This document shows, piece by piece, positions 31,516 to 54,813 of a DNA stretch of 64,000 nucleotides. The DNA is taken from IMG/VR virus record IMGVR_UViG_3300025120_014916, positions 1 to 64,000 of that record; one strand, given 5' to 3'. The notes under the pieces are model-generated. The model searched no databases. It had not been told where the DNA came from and saw only the letters and a program-made list of their open reading frames with translations. Within the stretch, counting starts at the first letter, position 1. Each line of letters starts with the position of its first letter. The position numbers were made by a program, and so were the translations under genes. Origin of the DNA: a virus.

Positions 31516-31884
31516 TTAATAATTTCGATCTTCATCCGGATCTCGGGCATTCATTCGAACATATTCCATATAACTGTCATGCTGATCAGGTGCTAAGTCT
31601 TCAGAACTTTGTTCATCATATTCTAAAGGTAGTGCTAATTGCTCAGGTTGAGATTCTATCTGATAGATTTTAGAATATATACTACTTAATTCTGTTTCCA
31701 TCGGGCCGAGATATCCATACGCGTATGCTTCGTTCTCTCCGCCCATATCTAACACATGATCATTCATCTGCTTTGTGAGCATGGCTGCTTTTTCTTTAAG
31801 AGCACGCAATTCATTGCTAGCTTCTGCAATTAAGCTTAGCTCTTCTTTAATGAGTCTTCTTATTGCTTTTCTATTTAATTTCAT
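31516..31884 (-). CDS. Small helical protein with targeting-like N-terminus
   Basis: The 122-residue protein begins MKLNRKAIRRLIKEELSL followed by IAEASNELRALKEKAAMLTK, so IAE-A sits 20-23 residues in, like the T4 gp21 cleavage pattern (I/L)-x-E. The rest is a charged helix and a polar tail (LGPMETELSSIYSKIYQIES). AGGAG lies seven bases before the ATG. I do not recognise the family. It sits with similar small genes between the neck and capsid regions, and being packaged in the prohead is a hypothesis. Confidence 0.7.
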   Translation of the reverse strand: MKLNRKAIRRLIKEELSLIAEASNELRALKEKAAMLTKQMNDHVLDMGGENEAYAYGYLGPMETELSSIYSKIYQIESQPEQLALPLEYDEQSSEDLAPDQHDSYMEYVRMNARDPDEDRNY

Positions 31885-31905: not shown

Positions 31906-32304
31906 CTATCTATCGTAGTCGCCGCTCATGATATCTTCACAGCATTCAATGAGCGCAGCTTTTGTTATTTCGCAAGAGCAACATTCAATAAGGCACATAA
32001 CAGCTGCACAGCAGTCTTCACGAGAAACATTGCCCATTGAAGATCCCATCATTGGAGTTGCGTCTGATGTGTGCATTGGAAGAAGTGCATCCATGTCATT
32101 ATCCTTAGGCATGTCATCTTCGTATTCATCACAACCGCAAGGACTCATTCCACATGCGTCACATCCGTGTTTATGACTTCCAACATGTCCTATGTCTTGT
32201 GAGAATGCACCGACTTTTCCGAAAGGTTGCATTCCAGTCATACCGATCATTTTAAATTCTGTAAGAATCATTTTTTGTAGTTGTTTCCGATTTAGTTTTG
32301 ACAT
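31906..32304 (-). CDS. Cysteine-rich small protein, probable metal-binding
   Basis: The 132-residue protein begins MSKLNRKQLQKMILTEFKMIG, the same type of N-terminus as its neighbour. It then carries HKHGCDACGMSPCGCDE, a His/Cys cluster, and a C-terminal helix-like segment with CCAAVMCLIECCSCEI and LIECCEDIM, about twelve Cys in all. The i, i+3/4 spacing along helices recalls four-helix metal-storage proteins, but I cannot show homology. Zinc or copper binding is a guess. AGGAG precedes the ATG, and a terminator separates it from the gene above at 32470-33288. Confidence 0.7.
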   Translation of the reverse strand: MSKLNRKQLQKMILTEFKMIGMTGMQPFGKVGAFSQDIGHVGSHKHGCDACGMSPCGCDEYEDDMPKDNDMDALLPMHTSDATPMMGSSMGNVSREDCCAAVMCLIECCSCEITKAALIECCEDIMSGDYDR

Positions 32305-40337: not shown

Positions 40338-40574
40338 TTATAACCTCTTTAATAGTTTTTGTTTAAGAGTATTTTTTACTGCTTCTATTTTTTTTAAATC
40401 AGATCTTTTTTTTGTTTTTGATTCGTTAAGAAGTTTAATAACTTTTAAATACGATTCAATAATTCTTTTATTTGATAATTTACTTTTTCTATTTTGCAAC
40501 TTTCTAAGTTTAAATTTTTCTTCTGCAATTATTCTTTTAAGCGTTGCAGGTGTTAGTTTTCTTACTCTTTTCAT
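40338..40574 (-). CDS. Small very basic protein with targeting-like N-terminus
   Basis: The 78-residue, Lys/Arg-rich protein starts MKRVRKLTPATLKRIIAEEK, where IIAE-E fits the (I/L)xE pattern at residues 15-18. The rest is helical and basic (KLRKLQNRKSKLSNKRIIES). It could bind DNA inside the head, like T4 internal proteins, or act as a core protein (gp67/68 position). These are inferences. AGGAG lies before the ATG. Confidence 0.65.
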   Translation of the reverse strand: MKRVRKLTPATLKRIIAEEKFKLRKLQNRKSKLSNKRIIESYLKVIKLLNESKTKKRSDLKKIEAVKNTLKQKLLKRL

Positions 40575-40667: not shown

Positions 40668-41138
40668 TTATCCAAACGCTAAAGATGCCCATTTTGAAGA
40701 AGCTTCTTCCCCAAACAATTTCTCAGGACTATTACTCTCTACCATTCGCTGCGCAGTATCACCAGAACCTGTGGGTGTAAAACCTTTTTTACTATCTGCT
40801 GCTAATTGATCCTGGAGGGTTGTATGTGCTGTATCAGCCAACATTTCTGCAAGTACAGGATCGTTAGTAATATTTGAAGCTAACTCATCTAGCCTTTTGT
40901 TCTTTTTTATATTCTTACTGACTTCACTGTCATTGTCAATGTTATCTAAGTATTTGGGCGTTTTTGATCTTCTGCTATACTTGCTTTCTGAAACAGACAT
41001 CGCTTCTTTGAGTGTTCTGGCTTTTTTTGCGCTCGAACGCGATGTCTTGGCTTCAGAATTCAAACCTTCAGCTAAGATTTCTATTAAGCATTCTTTAACA
41101 ATACCTTTTATAACGTTTTTGGTTAATTTATCTGCCAT
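40668..41138 (-). CDS. Head-region protein with targeting-like N-terminus
   Basis: The protein (156 aa from ATG 41138) starts MADKLTKNVIKGIVKECLIE followed by ILAEGLNSEAKTSR; LAE-G and similar sites fit the gp21 pattern. The remainder is polar and helical (NDPVLAEMLADTAHTTLQDQ). The start overlaps the protease stop in TAATG. I do not recognise a family; a head core or internal protein is inferred from position and N-terminus. Confidence 0.65.
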   Translation of the reverse strand: MADKLTKNVIKGIVKECLIEILAEGLNSEAKTSRSSAKKARTLKEAMSVSESKYSRRSKTPKYLDNIDNDSEVSKNIKKNKRLDELASNITNDPVLAEMLADTAHTTLQDQLAADSKKGFTPTGSGDTAQRMVESNSPEKLFGEEASSKWASLAFG

Positions 41139-41743
41139 TAGTCTTCCCACCTTAATATGTCATTAAACATTCTATTTATTCTATCTGATTTGTTAAAAGA
41201 TTTGTTAAGCTCAGAATTTGATATTTTCTTACCTTCACTCATCATAAAAGCACCTGGGGTGCTAGGTTCGGAAACCATGTCAAAGCAGATTAATTGAAAA
41301 TCTTCTTGAACTATTTGTGTATCGCCTTGGCTTTGTGTAGAACCTACGCCACGTGATGAGATGCCTAGTGTTACGCCACTCTCAATAAGTGACTGTATAA
41401 TTTTACCGCTAGGCGTATCAAGTAACTCTATGACACCGTAGACGTTGTCACCTTGCATCCTAGCTTCTTTTACTACGTGCGAAACATTTTTAAGTTCAAC
41501 AACAGATGATTCTGGGTGGTCACATTCGCCCAGTGCTCTATTTTCTTGAATGAGTTTTTGATAATTAATCACTTCCCGTTCTAAAATTGTTCTGGGGTAT
41601 ATTCTGCCATTTTGATTAAGTGTATTAGCTCTTTGTATAATGCCTTTTAGTAATACCTTTCCGTATTTTTCTTTTGATTCTTTAAGCATCTGCTTGTCAA
41701 TACTAATTGGACACCATTCTGTTAATAATTTTCTATCTGTCAT
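41138..41743 (-). CDS. Prohead maturation protease, T4 gp21-like
   Basis: This serine protease of the herpes/S77 type cleaves scaffold and capsid proteins at (I/L)xE sites during head maturation. The 201-residue sequence has NGRIYPRTILEREVINYQ, the catalytic His in LGECDHPESSVVELKNVSH, and the Ser region GVTLGISSRGVGS, followed by FDMVSEPSTPGAFM. T4 gp21 is 212 aa. It lies between the portal-side genes and the scaffold, as in T4 (20-67-68-21-22-23). Confidence 0.92.
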   Translation of the reverse strand: MTDRKLLTEWCPISIDKQMLKESKEKYGKVLLKGIIQRANTLNQNGRIYPRTILEREVINYQKLIQENRALGECDHPESSVVELKNVSHVVKEARMQGDNVYGVIELLDTPSGKIIQSLIESGVTLGISSRGVGSTQSQGDTQIVQEDFQLICFDMVSEPSTPGAFMMSEGKKISNSELNKSFNKSDRINRMFNDILRWED

Positions 41744-46622: not shown

Positions 46623-46885
46623 TTTTTCTCCTCAGGGTTTAACTGACATTTTCTATTATAAATATGCGTTTCTAGAGTTTCTTTATCAGGTCGCCACCCT
46701 TCTTTCCATTCTTTTTTTCTTGCTTCTATAAAAGTTAAGTAACAATCATTACAAGAACCGTCATAATCTTTTGAACTTTTAAAGTCTAATAAAGATGTTA
46801 ATGTAAACTTGCACAACGAACAGAAAAAATATTCATTACTTTGAGATAGTGAATCTTTAAAAATAACTTTATGGTTGATATACAT
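46619..46885 (-). CDS. Small zinc-ribbon-like protein
   Basis: The 88-residue protein has two Cys pairs, FFCSLC and SCNDC, 22 residues apart, and a charged C-terminus (WRPDKETLETHIYNRKCQL). It is probably a small zinc-binding protein. It overlaps the SbcCD-like gene by 17 bases and the next gene by 4 bases (ATGA). Function unknown; it lies at the junction between recombination and packaging genes. Confidence 0.65.
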   Translation of the reverse strand: MYINHKVIFKDSLSQSNEYFFCSLCKFTLTSLLDFKSSKDYDGSCNDCYLTFIEARKKEWKEGWRPDKETLETHIYNRKCQLNPEEKK

Positions 46886-49800
46886 GTGAATCTACTCCTT
46901 CTTTTATTATTTCTATTGTATTGTCTACAATATCTTTAATCGCATCAATATGAGAAATAATTATAATGTTTTTAAATAATTTTTTAAACGATGTTAGTAG
47001 TTTACTACAAGATTCTAGATTTGTTTCATCTAGCGCACCAAAACCTTCATCAATTATCAGCATGTTTGTCTTAGGAAGCGTTGAGACATTAATCAATGCA
47101 ACCCTTATCGCCAACGATGCCATCATTTTTTCCATACCTGATGCTAATTCAACAATTCTTCTGCTATCACCGTAGTTTATATAGATATCCATAGCATTAC
47201 TTTTTAAATCTGCTTCTAACTCTATAGTGAATCCGACAACGCCTTGTAAGATTTTTGATATCTCTGCATTAATTTTTGGTAATAGTGAGTATAGAAGCTG
47301 AACTGGAATTCCTCTTTTTGAGGTTGCTTGAATAAACATGTCATAAAGTTTAAGATCTTTATTTATTTTCTGATAATCCTCTAAATTCTTTTTGTAGAGA
47401 TCTCTTTTTGCGCGCCATGATGCAGTTTGACTTATCGCAGTGTCTCTTTTAGAATTAATTTGTTTTCTTTCTCTTTCAAGCTGACTGATGCGATTATGTA
47501 TTTCTTGAAACTCGCTCGAGTCTTGCGAATTAAAAAGTACTAATGTGTTTTTGTAATCTTGTTCTGCAGTGTTTAGCTGTCTTTTTAAGTTAACTATAGT
47601 TTGAATTGCTCTTTCAATTTTAATCTTTCTTTCAGATATTTCATCTACAAATTTTGACTTTTTGCTTAGAATTGTATTGTATTGTTCTATTTTCTTTTCG
47701 TAATCTTCTGATAGATTATTTAATTCGTTATCTATGTCATCAACTTTTACAGATAGAAAAGTTACTTTTTCTTCTTGATTGTCAAGTTTTTGCTTATTTC
47801 TATGTGAATTCTTAATGAATTTGCATGTTGGGAAACTGTCGCCACAAGGTACTTGATCTAGTATTTTTACAGATTTAGATATGTTATCTAATTCTTTCCT
47901 CTCAAGTTTTAAATTTCCTTTGAGTTCAATCAAAGATTGCCTGATTTTTCTTTTTGCGTCCCTCTTCTTTTTTATATCTTTTAAATTAAAATTGACTAAA
48001 AAGTTTTCAATCTTTTTAATTTTTGCTGTTTGCTCACTAATAGATTCAACTAGTTCAAACTTTTTATTTTCTAAAATTGATATATCGTTTTTTATCTTTA
48101 TGCAGCTAGCTTCCTTCTTATCAACAGTAGACTGCGGCATGTATTCTATTTCTTCGCTTATGCTCGTTTTCATTTCTTTTATTGTTGATTCAACTTCTTC
48201 TAGCTTGTTTTCACACGAAACCTTTACTAATAAGTGTTCATCAATCTTGCTTAAGCAGTGATTGTATTTATCTTCCCAGTTATCTGATGACAATACATTG
48301 ATTTTACTTCTTAAAGGACTGCACTCTTTTTTTGCCAATTCTGACATTTTATCGAAAACTTCCAAGTCTAAAAAGTTTGATAGGATATTTTTTCTAGCAG
48401 CCGCCTTTTCTTTAATAAAATTATTTATCTCTCCCTGTGAAGCTAAACTTGTCATTAAAAATTCTTCACTGGTGCCTATTGTCTTTCTAAGTATTTTTTC
48501 TGTTTCTCTTCTTTGTTCATCTGTTAAATCCTCTATAATATCTCCCGATCCGTTAAGTCTATAAAACTTTAAAGAGGTAGGTGCCCAAATATCTTTCTTT
48601 GTCTGCTTTTTAATTGTTTCTCTAGATATTCTATAAGGTATTCCTGCTACGCTTATGTCTATGTCTGCTGAACAGCTACTAAATCTTGTGTTGATTATGT
48701 GTAGATTTTTTATAGAGCCACGATCTGATGCATTAAAAAGTCCGTATACTAGACTTCCAATAACAGAAGACTTTCCGCGTGCATTTCTTCCAAATATACC
48801 AGTAATACCCGGCAAATTATCAAAATTAATATAGTTACCTTTACCGTATGAAAAGGTACTATCAAATTTCATGGAGTTGATGGTCCAATTGGAATTTCTA
48901 TTGTCTTCACCAGATTTTGATATTGTGTCAATATATTGGCTAGTCATTAAATTTAACTTTTCCCACTGATGATCATCTAAGTCATGACTGTCATAATAAG
49001 CTTTGATTAATTCAATTTGAACGTTTGAGTCTCTTAGATTTAATGCCTTATCATTTGTTTGATCGACTAGATTTTTTTCAGAATCAAACTTTGTCTCTAT
49101 CTTAAAAACAACTTCTTTTGCGTTATGACTCTTTTTTAACTGTTTTCTCAGTCTTTTAGCATCTGCTTGGGATATAAAATTATCAGCGCGTATTCTAAAT
49201 CTAGATTGGCGCGGATGATATTTGCATTCTATTAGCGTTGTCTTTATATCGCCTTGCCAGTCAACAGTTATGAAAGGATGAATATTTTTTACAGGTATGT
49301 ATTTAACATCAAAGTCGTTTCGGCCTCTTATGTCCCAAAACAAAAAACCCTTATCTGGCGTTTCGCCATAATTTTGCTGAATCGTACTTCCACAATACGC
49401 AACAGTTTTGTGTTTATCTAGAAACTGTCGCTTATGTATGTCTCCTAGTAATGCAAAATCATAATTTTTAAAAAACCCTAAGTTAACTTCGCCGCCTAAT
49501 TGCCAATCAATGTCTGTTAGTGATCCTCGCACGGAGCCATGAAACAATGCGATATTTATATCAGAAGGATCAGGTTTTAGATCGACCCAGTTTTCTTCAT
49601 CAAAACATGAAAAGACGCACCATTTAAAACCTGGATGACCCGTATCATATATACCTGTATCCTTTAAAAGAAATATGTTAGGATTGTCTATAGCGTTTAT
49701 GATTGGTGTGATTGCGTCTTGTCGATCTTTGTTTAATATGAGTCCGTCATGATTGCCTAATATTACATGAACTGGGCATATTGATGCCATCTTATTAAAC

Positions 49801-49991
49801 CACCAACAGAGACTCTGTATTAGCTCTGGTGATATTCCTTGTGTTTTACTATGTACAATATCACCCCCAATGTATATTACGTCAGGTTTGCAATCTCGTG
49901 CTTTTTTAAAAAAATCATTAAATGCTAATATGTACTCTTCATGCCTAGATAGTCCGCGCCAGTGGACGTCTGCAATATGAATAATCTTCAT
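46869..49991 (-). CDS. Fused Mre11/SbcD nuclease and Rad50/SbcC ATPase (T4 gp47-gp46 fusion)
   Basis: This 1040-residue protein joins two enzymes that T4 makes separately. Residues 1-300 carry the Mre11/gp47 phosphoesterase motifs: ADVH (7-10), GGDIVH, LGNHDG (78-83), FHGSV, GDIHKR. From about 370 on is a Rad50/gp46 ATPase: Walker A IFGRNARGKSS (399-409), a long coiled coil with a possible zinc hook at Cys716 and Cys723, a signature ELASGMEKMMAS, and Walker B MLIIDEGFGALDETN (977-991). The complex processes DNA ends for recombination and replication. The frame is open with no stop between halves. The start is preceded by AAGGAG. Confidence 0.9.
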   Translation of the reverse strand: MKIIHIADVHWRGLSRHEEYILAFNDFFKKARDCKPDVIYIGGDIVHSKTQGISPELIQSLCWWFNKMASICPVHVILGNHDGLILNKDRQDAITPIINAIDNPNIFLLKDTGIYDTGHPGFKWCVFSCFDEENWVDLKPDPSDINIALFHGSVRGSLTDIDWQLGGEVNLGFFKNYDFALLGDIHKRQFLDKHKTVAYCGSTIQQNYGETPDKGFLFWDIRGRNDFDVKYIPVKNIHPFITVDWQGDIKTTLIECKYHPRQSRFRIRADNFISQADAKRLRKQLKKSHNAKEVVFKIETKFDSEKNLVDQTNDKALNLRDSNVQIELIKAYYDSHDLDDHQWEKLNLMTSQYIDTISKSGEDNRNSNWTINSMKFDSTFSYGKGNYINFDNLPGITGIFGRNARGKSSVIGSLVYGLFNASDRGSIKNLHIINTRFSSCSADIDISVAGIPYRISRETIKKQTKKDIWAPTSLKFYRLNGSGDIIEDLTDEQRRETEKILRKTIGTSEEFLMTSLASQGEINNFIKEKAAARKNILSNFLDLEVFDKMSELAKKECSPLRSKINVLSSDNWEDKYNHCLSKIDEHLLVKVSCENKLEEVESTIKEMKTSISEEIEYMPQSTVDKKEASCIKIKNDISILENKKFELVESISEQTAKIKKIENFLVNFNLKDIKKKRDAKRKIRQSLIELKGNLKLERKELDNISKSVKILDQVPCGDSFPTCKFIKNSHRNKQKLDNQEEKVTFLSVKVDDIDNELNNLSEDYEKKIEQYNTILSKKSKFVDEISERKIKIERAIQTIVNLKRQLNTAEQDYKNTLVLFNSQDSSEFQEIHNRISQLERERKQINSKRDTAISQTASWRAKRDLYKKNLEDYQKINKDLKLYDMFIQATSKRGIPVQLLYSLLPKINAEISKILQGVVGFTIELEADLKSNAMDIYINYGDSRRIVELASGMEKMMASLAIRVALINVSTLPKTNMLIIDEGFGALDETNLESCSKLLTSFKKLFKNIIIISHIDAIKDIVDNTIEIIKEGVDSHVYQP

Positions 49992-50004: not shown

Positions 50005-51264
50005 TTAACTCATCTTCACAATAGAATCTCTTTTTTCTTTTGTGAAGTGAAGTTCGTATCCTGGTAATAATACCCAGCATCTTTTAGAAATACAAGTTTT
50101 TGGTTTAGGGGCACAACCATCTGTCATTACAATGCAACCGTCAAACTCAGATGATCTAGATCGAAAGTGATCTTCAACGCAATTAAAACATGTACCACCT
50201 GTTAATGTTCTCATAGGATTTCTATATTTCTGACCTTTTCTCCATGCGTACTCTGAGCCTTTATCAACTGTTGTATCAAAATGAAAGACCTTAAATGATA
50301 CGTTTTTTGCTAGTCCTTCTAAGGCTGAAAAAAACATTGCAATGCCATCATCGCCAACAGATCCGGATTGATCTATGTATATCGCAAGACTGGACGTCCT
50401 TCTTACTCTTGTCCCAGGATGAATATAAGGATATTTTCTATTTATTTTTCTAAAAGTTCTAGATTTTTTTGACTTTTGTTTAGTTCCACAAAAGTACTGG
50501 AGCGTTTTTTTCCAATCAATAACGGTGTCAAACATTAACGATATATCATCTTTTACCAATGTTGAACATGATCCCCAGCCATTCGATCTTGTATTTGCTT
50601 TATTTGCTGATCTCTTTATAATATCTTTAAGTTTTCCTTTCATAATTTCAATATCAGAATCTGTTAATGATCCGTCACCATCTAGATGCACATCAAAACC
50701 TGATGATGTTCCATCACCATATGCTTCTTGAAAAGCGCTTGAGACTTCTTTGTCTTCCTTAAGCTTTTCCATGTACCACTCTGAAGCCTTGCACTTTGGA
50801 AGATCAGCTAAAAACTTAGACATTTTTTTATTTCTTTTAATTATTTCTTCGGGCAAGTCTGACACACTTTTTTCGCTTAACGGTTTTCCCGGAATCAAAC
50901 CACCATCTGGTAGATAGTTTTCTGAAATAAGTGAATTAATTGCGAGATCTGTTGCTATATTCCAAAGTGTGTGTGGATCTTGCTTTCTAGCTACTACGTG
51001 TTGGTATATCAAGTGGTAACATTCATGTTTCATAAGTCCATAAAATTTAAGCTTGGGTAAGCTCGAAACAAAGTCAGGATTCCAATAAAGTGCAAAAGAG
51101 TTGTCTTTTACTGTAACACCCGCAGTCGGAATGTCATACGTCTTTATTTTCTTTAAATTCATAACTATTGATGCAAAAAATGGTTCTTCAAGTAAAAAAT
51201 CAACCATTAATTTATCAAATTTTCTGTCTGTTATCGTATGACCGTTAAATTCTTTAATTTCCAT
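50005..51264 (-). CDS. VWA-domain protein with metallopeptidase-like N-terminal domain (DUF2201-like)
   Basis: The 419-residue protein has an N-terminal helical part with KHECYHLIYQH (HExxH, residues 80-84). A basic linker and a C-terminal von Willebrand A fold follow, with MIDAS motif YIDQSGSVG, FHFDTTVDKG and IVMTDGC. This architecture (metallopeptidase-like plus VWA) is the usual partner of MoxR AAA+ ATPases, and a MoxR gene lies just upstream. Such pairs act as chaperone or metal-insertion machines. Whether the zinc site is catalytic is unknown. Start has AAGGAG. Confidence 0.85.
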   Translation of the reverse strand: MEIKEFNGHTITDRKFDKLMVDFLLEEPFFASIVMNLKKIKTYDIPTAGVTVKDNSFALYWNPDFVSSLPKLKFYGLMKHECYHLIYQHVVARKQDPHTLWNIATDLAINSLISENYLPDGGLIPGKPLSEKSVSDLPEEIIKRNKKMSKFLADLPKCKASEWYMEKLKEDKEVSSAFQEAYGDGTSSGFDVHLDGDGSLTDSDIEIMKGKLKDIIKRSANKANTRSNGWGSCSTLVKDDISLMFDTVIDWKKTLQYFCGTKQKSKKSRTFRKINRKYPYIHPGTRVRRTSSLAIYIDQSGSVGDDGIAMFFSALEGLAKNVSFKVFHFDTTVDKGSEYAWRKGQKYRNPMRTLTGGTCFNCVEDHFRSRSSEFDGCIVMTDGCAPKPKTCISKRCWVLLPGYELHFTKEKRDSIVKMS

Positions 51265-51290
51265 TATTTCTCCTTTATGTTTATAATACT

Positions 51291-51349
51291 ATTATAACGT
51301 ATTATGCATACCGTTACATGCGTTAACAATTACTGCATATGCATAATAC
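51291..51349 (-). promoter_or_regulatory. TATAAT and inverted repeat between MoxR and VWA genes
   Basis: GTATTATGCAT (51299-51309) and ATGCATAATAC (51339-51349) are perfect inverted 11-base arms with a 29-base spacer. Minus-strand TATAAT (51291-51296) follows directly, about 27 bases ahead of the VWA start. The repeat has no T-run, so it may be an operator or mRNA hairpin instead of a terminator. Confidence 0.45.
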
Positions 51350-51364
51350 ATGCTTATAAAACTA

Positions 51365-52432
51365 TTATTTCATTTCCGGACTGGCTTTGACTATTTTTGT
51401 TACTAGCGTTCCAAAATGTCTATGAAAATTCTTTATCAAATTAAGAATTTTTGTTTCCATAATCAAGTTAAAGAAATTGACAATCATTTCATCCGGACAT
51501 GCTTTAACATAATCTGAAATATTTTTAACTTGCTTAAGTGTAATGGTTTCGTGATTGGCATCAAGATATAACATGATTTTTTCAATTAAATCATTTTTCT
51601 TATCTTCGTTTAACATTGTCATTATGTCGTCTTTTACTTCACCATAACGATCTGCTACATCTTCAGCGCTAAAGCTTCTTGTATAGTCTTGCAAAAATCC
51701 AATAAACTTAGTTGTTGCAGAACTTCCAATAAATCCTAAACTTAGAGGAAATAAAAGTGCCGGCATTGATTTGTTTCCAGCATAATGATTAGGATTTAAA
51801 TTAGCGTGAATGAGTGTTTCACATAATCTATGCCATGACGCAGGATTTGGATATACTTTCCCCGGTTCCATTTCACCAGTATGACGCAAAAAATTTGAAT
51901 GCGTTTTTATAAATTCTTGCACAACAGAAGGAATATCGTCTCTGCTATACGCCCAGTCTAACCAGTCGTCTACAGTAGGCTCTAAGTCTATAGTCCAAAA
52001 TCTACGCAATAGTGCTGGATCCATATCTAGAACTTGGTATTCACTGCCTTCGTTAACTGCTGCATAAACACGTGTCTCTGGGTGCAATTTATGGCCGTTA
52101 AGCTCTCTATCTAAAACGATCTGGAATGCGCATTGTTGTACTTCCAAAGTTGCTCTGTTAAGCTCATCAAAAAATAGTACAACAGGCTCTTTACATGCCC
52201 TTACATACCAGTTTACCGGTGCAAAGCGCGTAACGCCATCAACCAATTCCGGAAGGCCTATAATATCACCTTCAGTCATTTGTGCTAGACGTCTATCGAT
52301 AACCGGCATATTAAGCGCTTTACCGACACTATGAACAATGTGTGATTTTCCAATACCTGTTGGGCCTTTTGCCAAAATAGAAATATGTGCAGGTAGGTTT
52401 GATGCTGACTTGATGAATGTTTTGATATCCAT
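51365..52432 (-). CDS. MoxR-type AAA+ ATPase
   Basis: The 355-residue protein has Walker A KGPTGIGKSH (22-31), Walker B PVVLFFDELNRA with Asp89-Glu90, sensor 1 RVYAAVN, and the arginine region DPALLRRFWTIDL. It forms hexameric rings that remodel protein complexes with a VWA partner. The downstream VWA/metallopeptidase gene (50005-51264) is the expected partner. C-terminal helices follow. GGAG lies at a good distance from the ATG. Substrate unknown; it may help virion maturation or reprogram a host complex. Confidence 0.9.
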   Translation of the reverse strand: MDIKTFIKSASNLPAHISILAKGPTGIGKSHIVHSVGKALNMPVIDRRLAQMTEGDIIGLPELVDGVTRFAPVNWYVRACKEPVVLFFDELNRATLEVQQCAFQIVLDRELNGHKLHPETRVYAAVNEGSEYQVLDMDPALLRRFWTIDLEPTVDDWLDWAYSRDDIPSVVQEFIKTHSNFLRHTGEMEPGKVYPNPASWHRLCETLIHANLNPNHYAGNKSMPALLFPLSLGFIGSSATTKFIGFLQDYTRSFSAEDVADRYGEVKDDIMTMLNEDKKNDLIEKIMLYLDANHETITLKQVKNISDYVKACPDEMIVNFFNLIMETKILNLIKNFHRHFGTLVTKIVKASPEMK

Positions 52433-53008: not shown

Positions 53009-54274
53009 CTATCTTAAAGCATCAAAGTACAAGTTTAATTTATCTATATAGTTATGACCTATTATTTTATTGACCCTTTCAAAGTTATAATTCATGTCTT
53101 TGCAAAGAATTGTTCTGCCAATCCTTCCATTACCATCAGAAAATGGATGTATATGCTCAAAATATGCGTGTCTCATGAATGGGTTTGAAGAATCTAGCGC
53201 GCAAAAATATTGTAGTTCATTGTAAATTTTATTAGTATCTATATATTTGTGACCGGTCGGGGAATTATGTTCAAAGTTTCGAAATTCCCCAGGTTTACCT
53301 CTTGTAAGACACTCAGGAAACATCTGGTTGTGCAAAGCAACAATATTAAAAGGGCTTTCAATATCATTAAACTTATATGAATATACTAGTGGTGCTATTA
53401 AAGTTTTTAAAAAAACACTATCAGTAACATATTCGAGAGGATACCCGCTATAAACTTTTGATGCCGCATTAATGCATTCTTGATATGGTACATTAAAGTT
53501 TTCTTTTTGATTAGACTTGTGAAGAAATGTGGCTAATGCAGTAATTGAATTATCTAGATTGTTTGACTTTTTTATCAAGAAGTTTGCAAAGCTTTTGTGA
53601 TCAGCTTTTTTTAACTTTTCAAAATTATAATTTTTATCTTGTGTTCCTGCAATAAATATTGCAGATAACATTTGGCCTATTATTTTGCCTGATGATATAT
53701 CAGTCGGGTAGTGTTTTCCGTTTTCTATTCTTGACTGGCCAATTAACTCTGCCAACATTTCCAAATCAGGCATCAATTCAGGATAAGAATCTCCAAGAAT
53801 GCCAGCTATAAAATAAGCTATACATGTATGTCCGGACGGAAAAGAAGGCGAAGATGATTCCTTAATTGACTCATAAATACTTCCCTCATCAACCAGGTAT
53901 GTTTTTGGTCGGGGCCGCTTGTGGGTGTACTTAAGTCTAAGAATGATTGTGTCTACATCTTTTAGAATATTTTTTATTTTTTTCCAATCAGGATTTAAAC
54001 TCATTTCTTCACAAAATACATTAAAACAATCTTCAACGGAACTGTCAGAAAGATTTAAAAAGCCGTCATCAAGACTAGGATTACTATAATAAAACTTTAC
54101 TGCGTCTAGATCTCTTTGATGCTCTATAGAGAAAACATCGGGACATGTTAATCGAGGTAGATTTTTTTCACTGTCTATAATAAACTTGCAATCTCTAGCA
54201 ATTCTTTTCTTAAATTTCTTAGGTACAACATTGTCGTCCTTAGTAAGATCAAATAGAGATTGTATCGAATTCAT
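53009..54274 (-). CDS. PAP2-type phosphatase domain fused to a Fic domain
   Basis: The 421-residue protein combines two enzyme families. Residues 110-200 carry the PAP2/acid phosphatase signature: K115-x6-R122P, PSFPSGHT (143-150), and SRxxxxxHxxxD (Ser181, Arg182, His188, Asp192). Residues 280-400 carry a Fic domain: LHNQMFPE, GEFRNFEHNSP, and the core HPFSDGNGRIGR with His376 and Arg384/387. Fic enzymes transfer AMP or another nucleotide to proteins; PAP2 enzymes remove phosphate. The usual inhibitory motif (S/T)xxxE(G/N) is at best degenerate (FNDIES). No transmembrane segment or signal peptide is seen, so it acts in the cytoplasm. It starts in a TAATG overlap after the zinc-ribbon gene. 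I know of no characterised phage protein with this pairing. Confidence 0.85.
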   Translation of the reverse strand: MNSIQSLFDLTKDDNVVPKKFKKRIARDCKFIIDSEKNLPRLTCPDVFSIEHQRDLDAVKFYYSNPSLDDGFLNLSDSSVEDCFNVFCEEMSLNPDWKKIKNILKDVDTIILRLKYTHKRPRPKTYLVDEGSIYESIKESSSPSFPSGHTCIAYFIAGILGDSYPELMPDLEMLAELIGQSRIENGKHYPTDISSGKIIGQMLSAIFIAGTQDKNYNFEKLKKADHKSFANFLIKKSNNLDNSITALATFLHKSNQKENFNVPYQECINAASKVYSGYPLEYVTDSVFLKTLIAPLVYSYKFNDIESPFNIVALHNQMFPECLTRGKPGEFRNFEHNSPTGHKYIDTNKIYNELQYFCALDSSNPFMRHAYFEHIHPFSDGNGRIGRTILCKDMNYNFERVNKIIGHNYIDKLNLYFDALR

Positions 54275-54813
54275 TACAGATCGCCTTCAAATTTATCGTA
54301 GTCAAGCGAGTGATACACTTCTGATATATCATCAGATATTTGTGCTATTTTAGTTCTTTGCCAATCATCTAGCTCGTAACCATCAGGAATCATTCCTAAA
54401 AGCTTTTGTGCGTATTTTGCAACTTTATAAAGTGAAGGCTTTGCCATGTAATTGTTGGATTTAATTTCGTGACTGTTAGCGTCGTTAAAACTAATCTGTG
54501 TTGATTTTGCGCCTACATCAAACAAATCATACATTGCATCTATAGAATTGTCTGTGCTATTATTAGAAGATCCTCCGCAACCGCAGTCACCCTCAGTCAA
54601 ACTAGATATTTCATACATGCTACCGCATTGTTCGCAAACTGATTCACCTTCATACATTGCTGACCCACACTCTGTACATGATCTTTTATTCTGCATGCTT
54701 CTATACAAATCTTGTCGACCCGGGTCATCAAAGCCTGATTGTAATGCGTCTTCTTTGATTTTATTTATTTCTTGAATTATAAGCTTTCTAATTATGCTTC
54801 TTTTTAGCTTCAT
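54274..54813 (-). CDS. Zinc-ribbon protein with targeting-like N-terminus
   Basis: The 179-residue protein begins MKLKRSIIRKLIIQEINK followed by IKEDA, again the small-protein N-terminus with (I/L)xE sites. Next are CTECGSAMYEGESVCEQCG, a zinc ribbon, and a CGCGG cluster. The C-terminal helical domain with LYKVAKYAQKLL and DDWQRTKIAQISDDISEVYH resembles a domain seen widely in marine phage hypotheticals (W..KI..A.D.I..VYH). Its stop overlaps the PAP2-Fic start, so the two are co-translated. Function unknown. Confidence 0.7.
   Translation of the reverse strand: MKLKRSIIRKLIIQEINKIKEDALQSGFDDPGRQDLYRSMQNKRSCTECGSAMYEGESVCEQCGSMYEISSLTEGDCGCGGSSNNSTDNSIDAMYDLFDVGAKSTQISFNDANSHEIKSNNYMAKPSLYKVAKYAQKLLGMIPDGYELDDWQRTKIAQISDDISEVYHSLDYDKFEGDL

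What the first reader, a model, noticed from the sequence alone, without database searches (positions are those of the whole stretch)
53009..54274. PAP2-type phosphatase fused to a Fic domain in a phage
Both halves keep their full signatures: PAP2 (K-x6-RP, PSGH, SR-x5-H-x3-D) and Fic (HPFSDGNGRIGR). Fic enzymes AMPylate or otherwise modify proteins, and PAP2 enzymes remove phosphates, so one polypeptide could reversibly modify a host target or process a nucleotide product. The protein has no membrane anchor and is translated with a zinc-ribbon protein that carries a targeting-like N-terminus. The Fic inhibitory motif looks degenerate, which would make it active. I do not know a characterised phage protein with this pairing.
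Basis: partly seen in the sequence, partly recalled or inferred. Interest (0 to 1): 0.85.

Follow-up and report, generated by a model that had tools for sequence, protein, structure and literature searches.

The report
Conserved phage phosphatase–Fic fusion enzyme
A group of uncultivated T4-like phages all carry one protein that joins a phosphate-removing enzyme to an enzyme that attaches AMP to proteins; both active sites are intact and the pairing appears to be undescribed, so it is probably a tool for taking over the host, although what it acts on is unknown.

Summary
ORF 53009-54274(-) is one 421-aa protein with a PAP2 domain (Pfam 56 bits) and a Fic domain (35 bits), both above their cut-offs. 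The same fusion is a single ORF in 19 related IMG/VR contigs (33-48% identity), in the same gene neighbourhood. PAP2 catalytic residues and the Fic loop HPFxDGNGRxGR are retained, both halves are under purifying selection, and the Fic halves form one clade (100/100). I found no such fusion in INPHARED, PLSDB, the best GTDB loci or the papers held. The AlphaFold model is confident (pLDDT 90, pTM 0.87): a soluble class A acid phosphatase fold plus a Fic core.

The Fic inhibitory motif is not degenerate: S254-NQK-E258-N259 fits (S/T)xxxE(G/N) at the class II position, and its glutamate is invariant. The enzyme is probably self-inhibited.

Relatives of each half also occur alone or in other multi-domain phage proteins, several with an N-terminal helix resembling a capsid-targeting tag. 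The fusion lacks that helix; its translationally coupled zinc-ribbon partner has it. Best reading: a regulated dual-enzyme host-takeover effector, possibly virion-carried. Target and delivery are untested. New variant of a known kind.

The parts
53009..54274 (-). PAP2-Fic fusion gene, 421 aa
   Evidence: Pfam PAP2 and Fic both above gathering scores; single ORF in 19 relatives; AlphaFold pLDDT 90.4, pTM 0.87
53645..54274 (-). N-terminal half, aa 1-210: soluble all-helical PAP2 domain of class A acid phosphatase type
   Evidence: PDB profile hits PhoC/PhoN E about 1e-14; Foldseek TM 0.59-0.69 on the target length
53906..53932 (-). PAP2 motif 1, K115-x6-R122P123
   Evidence: K115, R122, P123 invariant in A1
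53828..53839 (-). PAP2 motif 2, P146SGH149
   Evidence: invariant in A1
53699..53734 (-). PAP2 motif 3, S181R182-x5-H188-x3-D192
   Evidence: R182, H188, D192 invariant; S181 is T in L008, L011, L023
53012..53608 (-). C-terminal half, aa 223-421: class II-type Fic domain
   Evidence: Pfam Fic; Foldseek hits FICD, Coxiella Fic2, M. marinum Fic; one clade with tagged solo phage Fics
53498..53557 (-). predicted inhibitory helix and motif S254NQKE258N259 (aa 240-259)
   Evidence: helix 240-257 in the model; Glu258 invariant in 16 fusions and in 18 Fic sequences including the solo ones
53114..53149 (-). Fic active-site loop H376PFSDGNGRIGR387
   Evidence: HPF, DGNGR and GR positions invariant
54274..54813 (-). 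zinc-ribbon protein, 179 aa, translationally coupled upstream partner (TAATG, one-base overlap)
   Evidence: homologue upstream in most relatives; the same one-base overlap in L006, L008, L009, L010, L011, L016, L023, L024
54763..54813 (-). tag-like N-terminal helix of the zinc-ribbon protein, MKLKRSIIRKLIIQEIN
   Evidence: tag HMM E 8.3e-5; 10/115 N-termini against 4/1162 internal windows, Fisher p 1.8e-8

Best explanation
The gene encodes a soluble two-domain enzyme, a core gene of one clade of uncultivated T4-like phages. Its N-terminal half is a class A acid-phosphatase-type PAP2 phosphohydrolase and its C-terminal half a class II Fic AMP-transferase. The most likely role is host takeover or counter-defence. 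The Fic site would attach AMP (or another nucleotide monophosphate) from an NTP to hydroxyl groups of a host protein. It would be held off by its own inhibitory helix (Glu258) until a target, a partner or a change of oligomer releases it. The PAP2 site would remove phosphate from a nucleotide or phosphoprotein in the same pathway. The translationally coupled zinc-ribbon protein, with its tag-like N-terminus, is the likely stoichiometric partner, and may bring the enzyme to DNA or into the head so that it enters the cell with the genome. Shown here: the fusion, its conservation, both intact catalytic signatures, the conserved inhibitory glutamate, the gene coupling, and the use of both domain types in tagged or multi-domain phage proteins elsewhere. 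Inferred: AMP as donor group, a host target, auto-inhibition in fact, a complex with the zinc ribbon, virion delivery, and the substrate of PAP2.
For: Both domains above Pfam cut-offs; catalytic residues of both and Glu258 invariant; low dN/dS in both halves. One ORF in the order primase / zinc ribbon / fusion / MoxR ATPase / VWA / SbcDC / terminase / portal in most relatives. Confident single model with PhoC/PhoN and FICD-type matches. Nearest solo Fic genes begin with the tag helix (L042, L043) or sit in multi-domain proteins: Fic-NUDIX (L047), LRV repeats-Fic (L044), polyA polymerase-Fic (L046). Nearest other PAP2 genes also carry the tag (L215, L207) or are fused, e.g. to topoisomerase IB (L220). 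The tag is enriched on N-termini of this genome, which has a head maturation protease. T-even internal proteins are a diverse set of anti-restriction proteins sharing only a capsid-targeting sequence (PMC3012670).
Against: The fusion itself carries no detectable tag. No virion proteome, expression or activity data exist for this clade. The gene lies among replication and structural genes rather than in an obvious early takeover cluster. That the N-terminal helix is a capsid-targeting signal is an analogy with T4, not a demonstration. Donor and target cannot be read from sequence.
Confidence: 0.5

Rival explanations
1. Nucleotide-pool or DNA-metabolism enzyme: PAP2 is the working catalyst (nucleotide or pyrophosphate phosphatase serving replication) and Fic is a regulatory or target-binding domain that modifies a phage replication protein or the PAP2 half itself.
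For: Neighbours are primase, RuvC-like resolvase, MoxR ATPase and SbcDC. Class A acid phosphatases, the nearest solved relatives, are known to hydrolyse nucleotides (general knowledge). The Fic relative in L047 is fused to a NUDIX domain.
Against: PAP2 and Fic relatives elsewhere occur as tagged solo or multi-domain proteins away from replication genes. All Fic catalytic residues are kept, so Fic is not just a scaffold.
Confidence: 0.2
2. Counter-defence against nucleotide signalling or nucleotide-consuming immunity: PAP2 degrades a phosphorylated signal and Fic inactivates a sensor or effector protein.
For: Jumbo-phage literature predicts many phage proteins, some injected, that destroy nucleotide signals, and reports fusions of signal-making and signal-degrading domains (PMC7824862). 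Fic relatives here pair with NUDIX and polyA polymerase domains.
Against: No defence system or signal is identified; PADLOC matches are only generic Fic models. Strict conservation as a core gene suggests a general role rather than one against a patchy defence.
Confidence: 0.15
3. Self-contained reversible switch: Fic AMPylates a target and PAP2 removes the modification or clears its product.
For: Both activities are in one polypeptide with a fixed predicted arrangement (pTM 0.87).
Against: PAP2 enzymes are not known as phosphodiesterases of AMP-protein bonds (general knowledge). FICD deAMPylates with its own Fic site and Glu234 (PMC6826200), and the equivalent Glu258 is kept here. Solo Fics of the same clade manage without PAP2.
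Confidence: 0.08
4. Artefact of assembly or gene calling: two genes joined by chance in one contig.
For: None found.
Against: The same single ORF in 19 relatives from different metagenomes; Fic halves monophyletic 100/100.
Confidence: 0.01

Closest known systems
Class A non-specific acid phosphatases PhoC/PhoN (PAP2 superfamily, PDB 1d2t, 2a96, 9qcj)
   Same: Soluble helical PAP2 fold; K-x6-RP, PSGH, SR-x5-H-x3-D; best sequence and fold matches of the N-terminal half
   Different: No signal peptide, 20-24% identity, fused to Fic, phage-encoded
Class II Fic AMP-transferases (SoFic, FICD/HYPE, Coxiella Fic2)
   Same: HPFxDGNGRxxR loop and an N-terminal (S/T)xxxE(G/N) inhibitory helix (PMC3667792); fold matches
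   Different: No TPR or winged-helix part; PAP2 domain in front; the residue after Glu varies in the clade; no target known
T4-type internal head proteins (IPI-III, Alt)
   Same: Diverse effector or enzyme proteins that share only an N-terminal tag, in a phage with a head maturation protease (PMC3012670)
   Different: The tag sequence differs from T4's, and the fusion itself lacks it; only its coupled zinc-ribbon partner has it
Polyvalent proteins of phages (Iyer et al. 2017, PMC5512222)
   Same: Injected multi-domain proteins combining unrelated enzymatic domains; relatives of each half occur in such large proteins (L044, L046, L220)
   Different: Only two domains; that paper mentions neither Fic nor PAP2 in its main text; injection not shown here

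Membership tests
PAP2 superfamily, class A acid phosphatase type | Sequence and fold similarity above curated cut-offs | tested here: met
   PF01569 56.4 bits, cut-off 27.2; PhoC/PhoN E about 1e-14 and TM 0.59-0.69 on target
PAP2 superfamily, class A acid phosphatase type | Catalytic K, R, S/H, R, H, D residues | tested here: met
   K115, R122, S147, H149, R182, H188, D192 invariant in 16 sequences
PAP2 superfamily, class A acid phosphatase type | Periplasmic export by a signal peptide | tested here: not met
   No hydrophobic N-terminus; so the fold type, not the periplasmic class A enzyme group
PAP2 superfamily, class A acid phosphatase type | Phosphatase activity | not testable with these tools
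   needs enzyme assay
Fic/Fido AMP-transferase, class II | HxFx(D/E)GNGRxxR active-site motif | tested here: met
   HPFSDGNGRIGR 376-387, invariant core
Fic/Fido AMP-transferase, class II | (S/T)xxxE(G/N) inhibitory helix N-terminal to the Fic core | tested here: met
   S254NQKEN259 at the end of model helix 240-257; Glu invariant in 18 Fic sequences; the G/N after it is not kept in most fused relatives
Fic/Fido AMP-transferase, class II | Glu-Arg(2) contact occluding the gamma-phosphate site | not tested
Fic/Fido AMP-transferase, class II | AMP transfer to protein hydroxyls | not testable with these tools
   needs enzyme assay
T4-type internal head protein | N-terminal capsid-targeting tag on the protein | tested here: not met
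   fused proteins score at background with the tag HMM (best E 0.095, L017); the coupled zinc-ribbon partner scores 8.3e-5
T4-type internal head protein | Presence in the virion | not testable with these tools
   needs virion proteomics

The most novel reading that the evidence does not exclude
A virion-delivered, self-inhibited AMP-transferase coupled to a nucleotide/protein phosphatase in one polypeptide. It would be a phage enzyme that AMPylates host proteins at infection, by analogy with T4's ADP-ribosylating Alt, activated on delivery together with a tagged zinc-ribbon carrier.
Probability: 0.25. Interest if true: 0.8.

Novelty: new variant of a known kind. Interest (0 to 1): 0.55.

Why it matters
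Phages reprogram hosts by ADP-ribosylation (T4 Alt/ModA/ModB) and acetylation (Rac); AMPylation by a phage takeover enzyme was not described in any paper found here. A strictly conserved PAP2-Fic core gene, whose two modules recur in tagged or multi-domain phage proteins, makes that question directly testable with one small soluble protein. It also points to a pool of effector-like modules in uncultivated T4-like phages, recognisable by a shared N-terminal helix.

Tried and rejected
(1) Single-sequence scans of viral contigs and genome contigs with the fusion found no relative; going through the neighbouring MoxR ATPase worked. (2) Conserved frameshift or two-gene explanation: rejected, one ORF in 19 relatives. 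(3) Degenerate inhibitory motif: rejected. (4) Membrane lipid phosphatase of LpxE or BcrC type: sequence hits exist, but no segment is hydrophobic enough for a membrane span. (6) Toxin-antitoxin reading of the zinc-ribbon partner: the fusion already carries its own inhibitory helix; not pursued further. (7) Papers on Fic with PAP2, or phage Fic takeover: none found.

Full report
WHAT WAS CHECKED. The window is bases 1-64000 of a 136,409-base IMG/VR virus record, G+C 34%, nearly all genes on the minus strand. The ORF at 53009-54274(-) encodes 421 aa. Pfam gives PAP2 (56.4 bits, cut-off 27.2, aa 114-214) and Fic (35.5 bits, cut-off 24, aa 311-390). Catalytic positions are K115, R122, P123, P146-H149, S181, R182, H188, D192 and H376-R387. 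The virus is T4-like: portal, terminase, head maturation protease, major head protein and tail sheath are recognised by PHROGs, and the terminase is closest to those of T4-like phages at up to 39-40% identity.

IT IS CONSERVED AND IT IS ONE GENE. Scanning IMG/VR with the neighbouring MoxR-type ATPase gave 20 loci. All 16 that cover the region in related phages carry the fusion as one uninterrupted ORF between the primase (with the zinc-ribbon gene in most) and the ATPase, followed by the VWA/metallopeptidase gene, an SbcD-SbcC gene, terminase and portal. L014, L015 and L025 share only the ATPase/VWA pair and belong to other phages; L019 is cut before the gene. A profile scan added L033, L035 and L039. 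Identity to the window protein is 33-48% in the pairwise searches. In A1 the invariant columns include K115, R122, P123, P146-H149, R182, H188, D192, E258, H315, R332, H336, H376-F378, D380-R384 and R387. In the pairs measured, dN is well below dS in each half (for example L018/L020: PAP2 0.12 against 0.79, Fic 0.08 against 1.36). Synonymous sites are saturated in several pairs. The Fic halves form one clade with 100/100 support, so the fusion most simply arose once; the PAP2 tree is less resolved.

STRUCTURE. AlphaFold2 with A1 gave pLDDT 90.4 and pTM 0.87; only the first ~15 residues, the linker near 211-220 and the last residue are weak. Foldseek against the PDB matches class A acid phosphatases (PhoC, PhoN, E. 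blattae; TM 0.59-0.69 on the target) and, for the rest, FICD, Coxiella Fic2 and a Mycobacterium marinum Fic protein. The full-length FICD superpositions have large rmsd (about 17 A), so they support the domain, not the overall arrangement. Sequence profiles agree: PhoC/PhoN E about 1e-14, best Fic proteins E 2e-7 to 1e-5. No segment is hydrophobic enough for a membrane span.

THE INHIBITORY MOTIF. Class II Fic proteins carry (S/T)xxxE(G/N) on a helix before the Fic core; the glutamate competes with the ATP gamma-phosphate for the second Arg of the active-site motif (PMC3667792). The window has S254NQKEN259 at the end of model helix 240-257, 118 residues before His376. Fused relatives read TNEIEN, TNQIER, SNEIER and the like; four of the solo Fics read SNKIEG or SNEIEG. 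The Glu is invariant in all 18 aligned Fic sequences, and also in L033, L035 and L039. The Ile-to-Lys change before Glu258 in the window might weaken the helix; that is untested. In FICD the same Glu is needed for deAMPylation, and oligomeric state switches the activity (PMC6826200).

WHERE THE MODULES COME FROM. Other members of the same Fic clade (100/98 apart from other phage Fics) have no PAP2. L042 and L043 are ~210-aa Fic proteins beginning MRITRKNLRKIILENI / MRITKNDLRKIIVESI; L047 is Fic-NUDIX; L044 has leucine-rich-variant repeats before Fic; L046 has a polyA polymerase head domain before Fic; L041 is a short Fic next to a Swiss-army-knife HAD/polyA polymerase gene. PAP2 relatives outside the clade (L204-L220) are mostly ~210-250-aa solo proteins, some with the same kind of N-terminus (L215, L207), plus larger fusions such as L220 with topoisomerase IB. 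A profile of this N-terminal helix, trained only on other phages, hits 10 of 115 N-termini of this genome at E<=0.1 against 4 of 1162 internal windows (Fisher p 1.8e-8); it hits the zinc-ribbon protein at 8.3e-5 but not the fusion. The genome has a head maturation protease. The helix therefore looks like a capsid-targeting tag in the sense of T4 internal proteins (PMC3012670), but that is an analogy. Five of the ten tag hits are individually weak (E 0.01-0.1); the enrichment is the evidence.

THE PARTNER. The zinc-ribbon stop codon overlaps the fusion's start codon by one base (TAATG), as in L006, L008, L009, L010, L011, L016, L023 and L024; in L007, L033, L035 and L039 the two genes are adjacent or separated by one or two bases. 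Conserved coupling suggests stoichiometric synthesis and perhaps a complex. Its C-terminal ~65 residues are strongly conserved. In L012, L017, L018 and L020 the slot holds a shorter tagged ORF without that C-terminus.

MECHANISM. Most likely a regulated host-takeover or counter-defence enzyme: NMP transfer by Fic to a host protein, repressed by Glu258, and a phosphohydrolase acting in the same pathway. The zinc-ribbon protein is the candidate carrier or regulator. Each functional step is inference from families. The rivals (nucleotide metabolism, nucleotide-signal counter-defence, self-reversing switch) are listed with tests.

NOVELTY. The Fido survey of fused domains does not list PAP2 (PMC2686095), and the polyvalent-protein paper mentions neither in its main text. 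Both families are well known, so this is a new architecture of known kinds: a new variant, moderately interesting until an activity is shown.

LIMITS. All relatives are metagenomic contigs; the host is unknown; no activity, expression or virion data exist. Start sites of L017, L021 and L022 are uncertain. L012 and L013 are near-identical, so 19 contigs give 18 independent sequences.

Noticed in passing
genome-wide; e.g. 31516-31884, 31906-32304, 40338-40574, 40668-41150, 54274-54813 and L005 4898-5542, 5545-7647, 7666-8340, 9284-9685, 10850-11869 (all -): About ten otherwise unrelated proteins share an N-terminal helix of the type MKLxRxxLRxLIxEE; it is even more common in loci L042-L047. Possible capsid-targeting tag of this phage group.
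   Followed up: partly
46869-49991 (-): SbcD-like nuclease and SbcC-like ATPase fused in one 1040-aa protein; the same full-length fusion lies in the relatives (PHROG 77 and 100).
   Followed up: no
50005-52432 (-): MoxR-type AAA ATPase next to a DUF2201 VWA/metallopeptidase-like protein; this pair is shared with otherwise unrelated phages (L014, L015, L025).
   Followed up: no
L047:5986-6975: Solo relative with Fic fused to a NUDIX hydrolase (329 aa), starting MKLILESWRKFVKEE; another pairing of Fic with a nucleotide-cleaving enzyme.
   Followed up: partly
L046:4795-8295 and L044:4009-7089: Very large phage proteins with polyA polymerase + Fic (1166 aa) and leucine-rich-variant repeats + Fic (1026 aa).
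   Followed up: partly
L220:5356-8232: 958-aa phage protein joining PAP2 to a eukaryote-type topoisomerase IB core.
   Followed up: no
record positions about 88100-108218 (L003, L004): Block of glycosyltransferase, sugar epimerase, KdsA-like and cytidylyltransferase-like genes judged by eye from N-termini; looks like surface-sugar biosynthesis.
   Followed up: no
L005:4898-5542 (-): Tagged protein with a weak VanY D-Ala-D-Ala carboxypeptidase match (16.5 bits, below cut-off).
   Followed up: no
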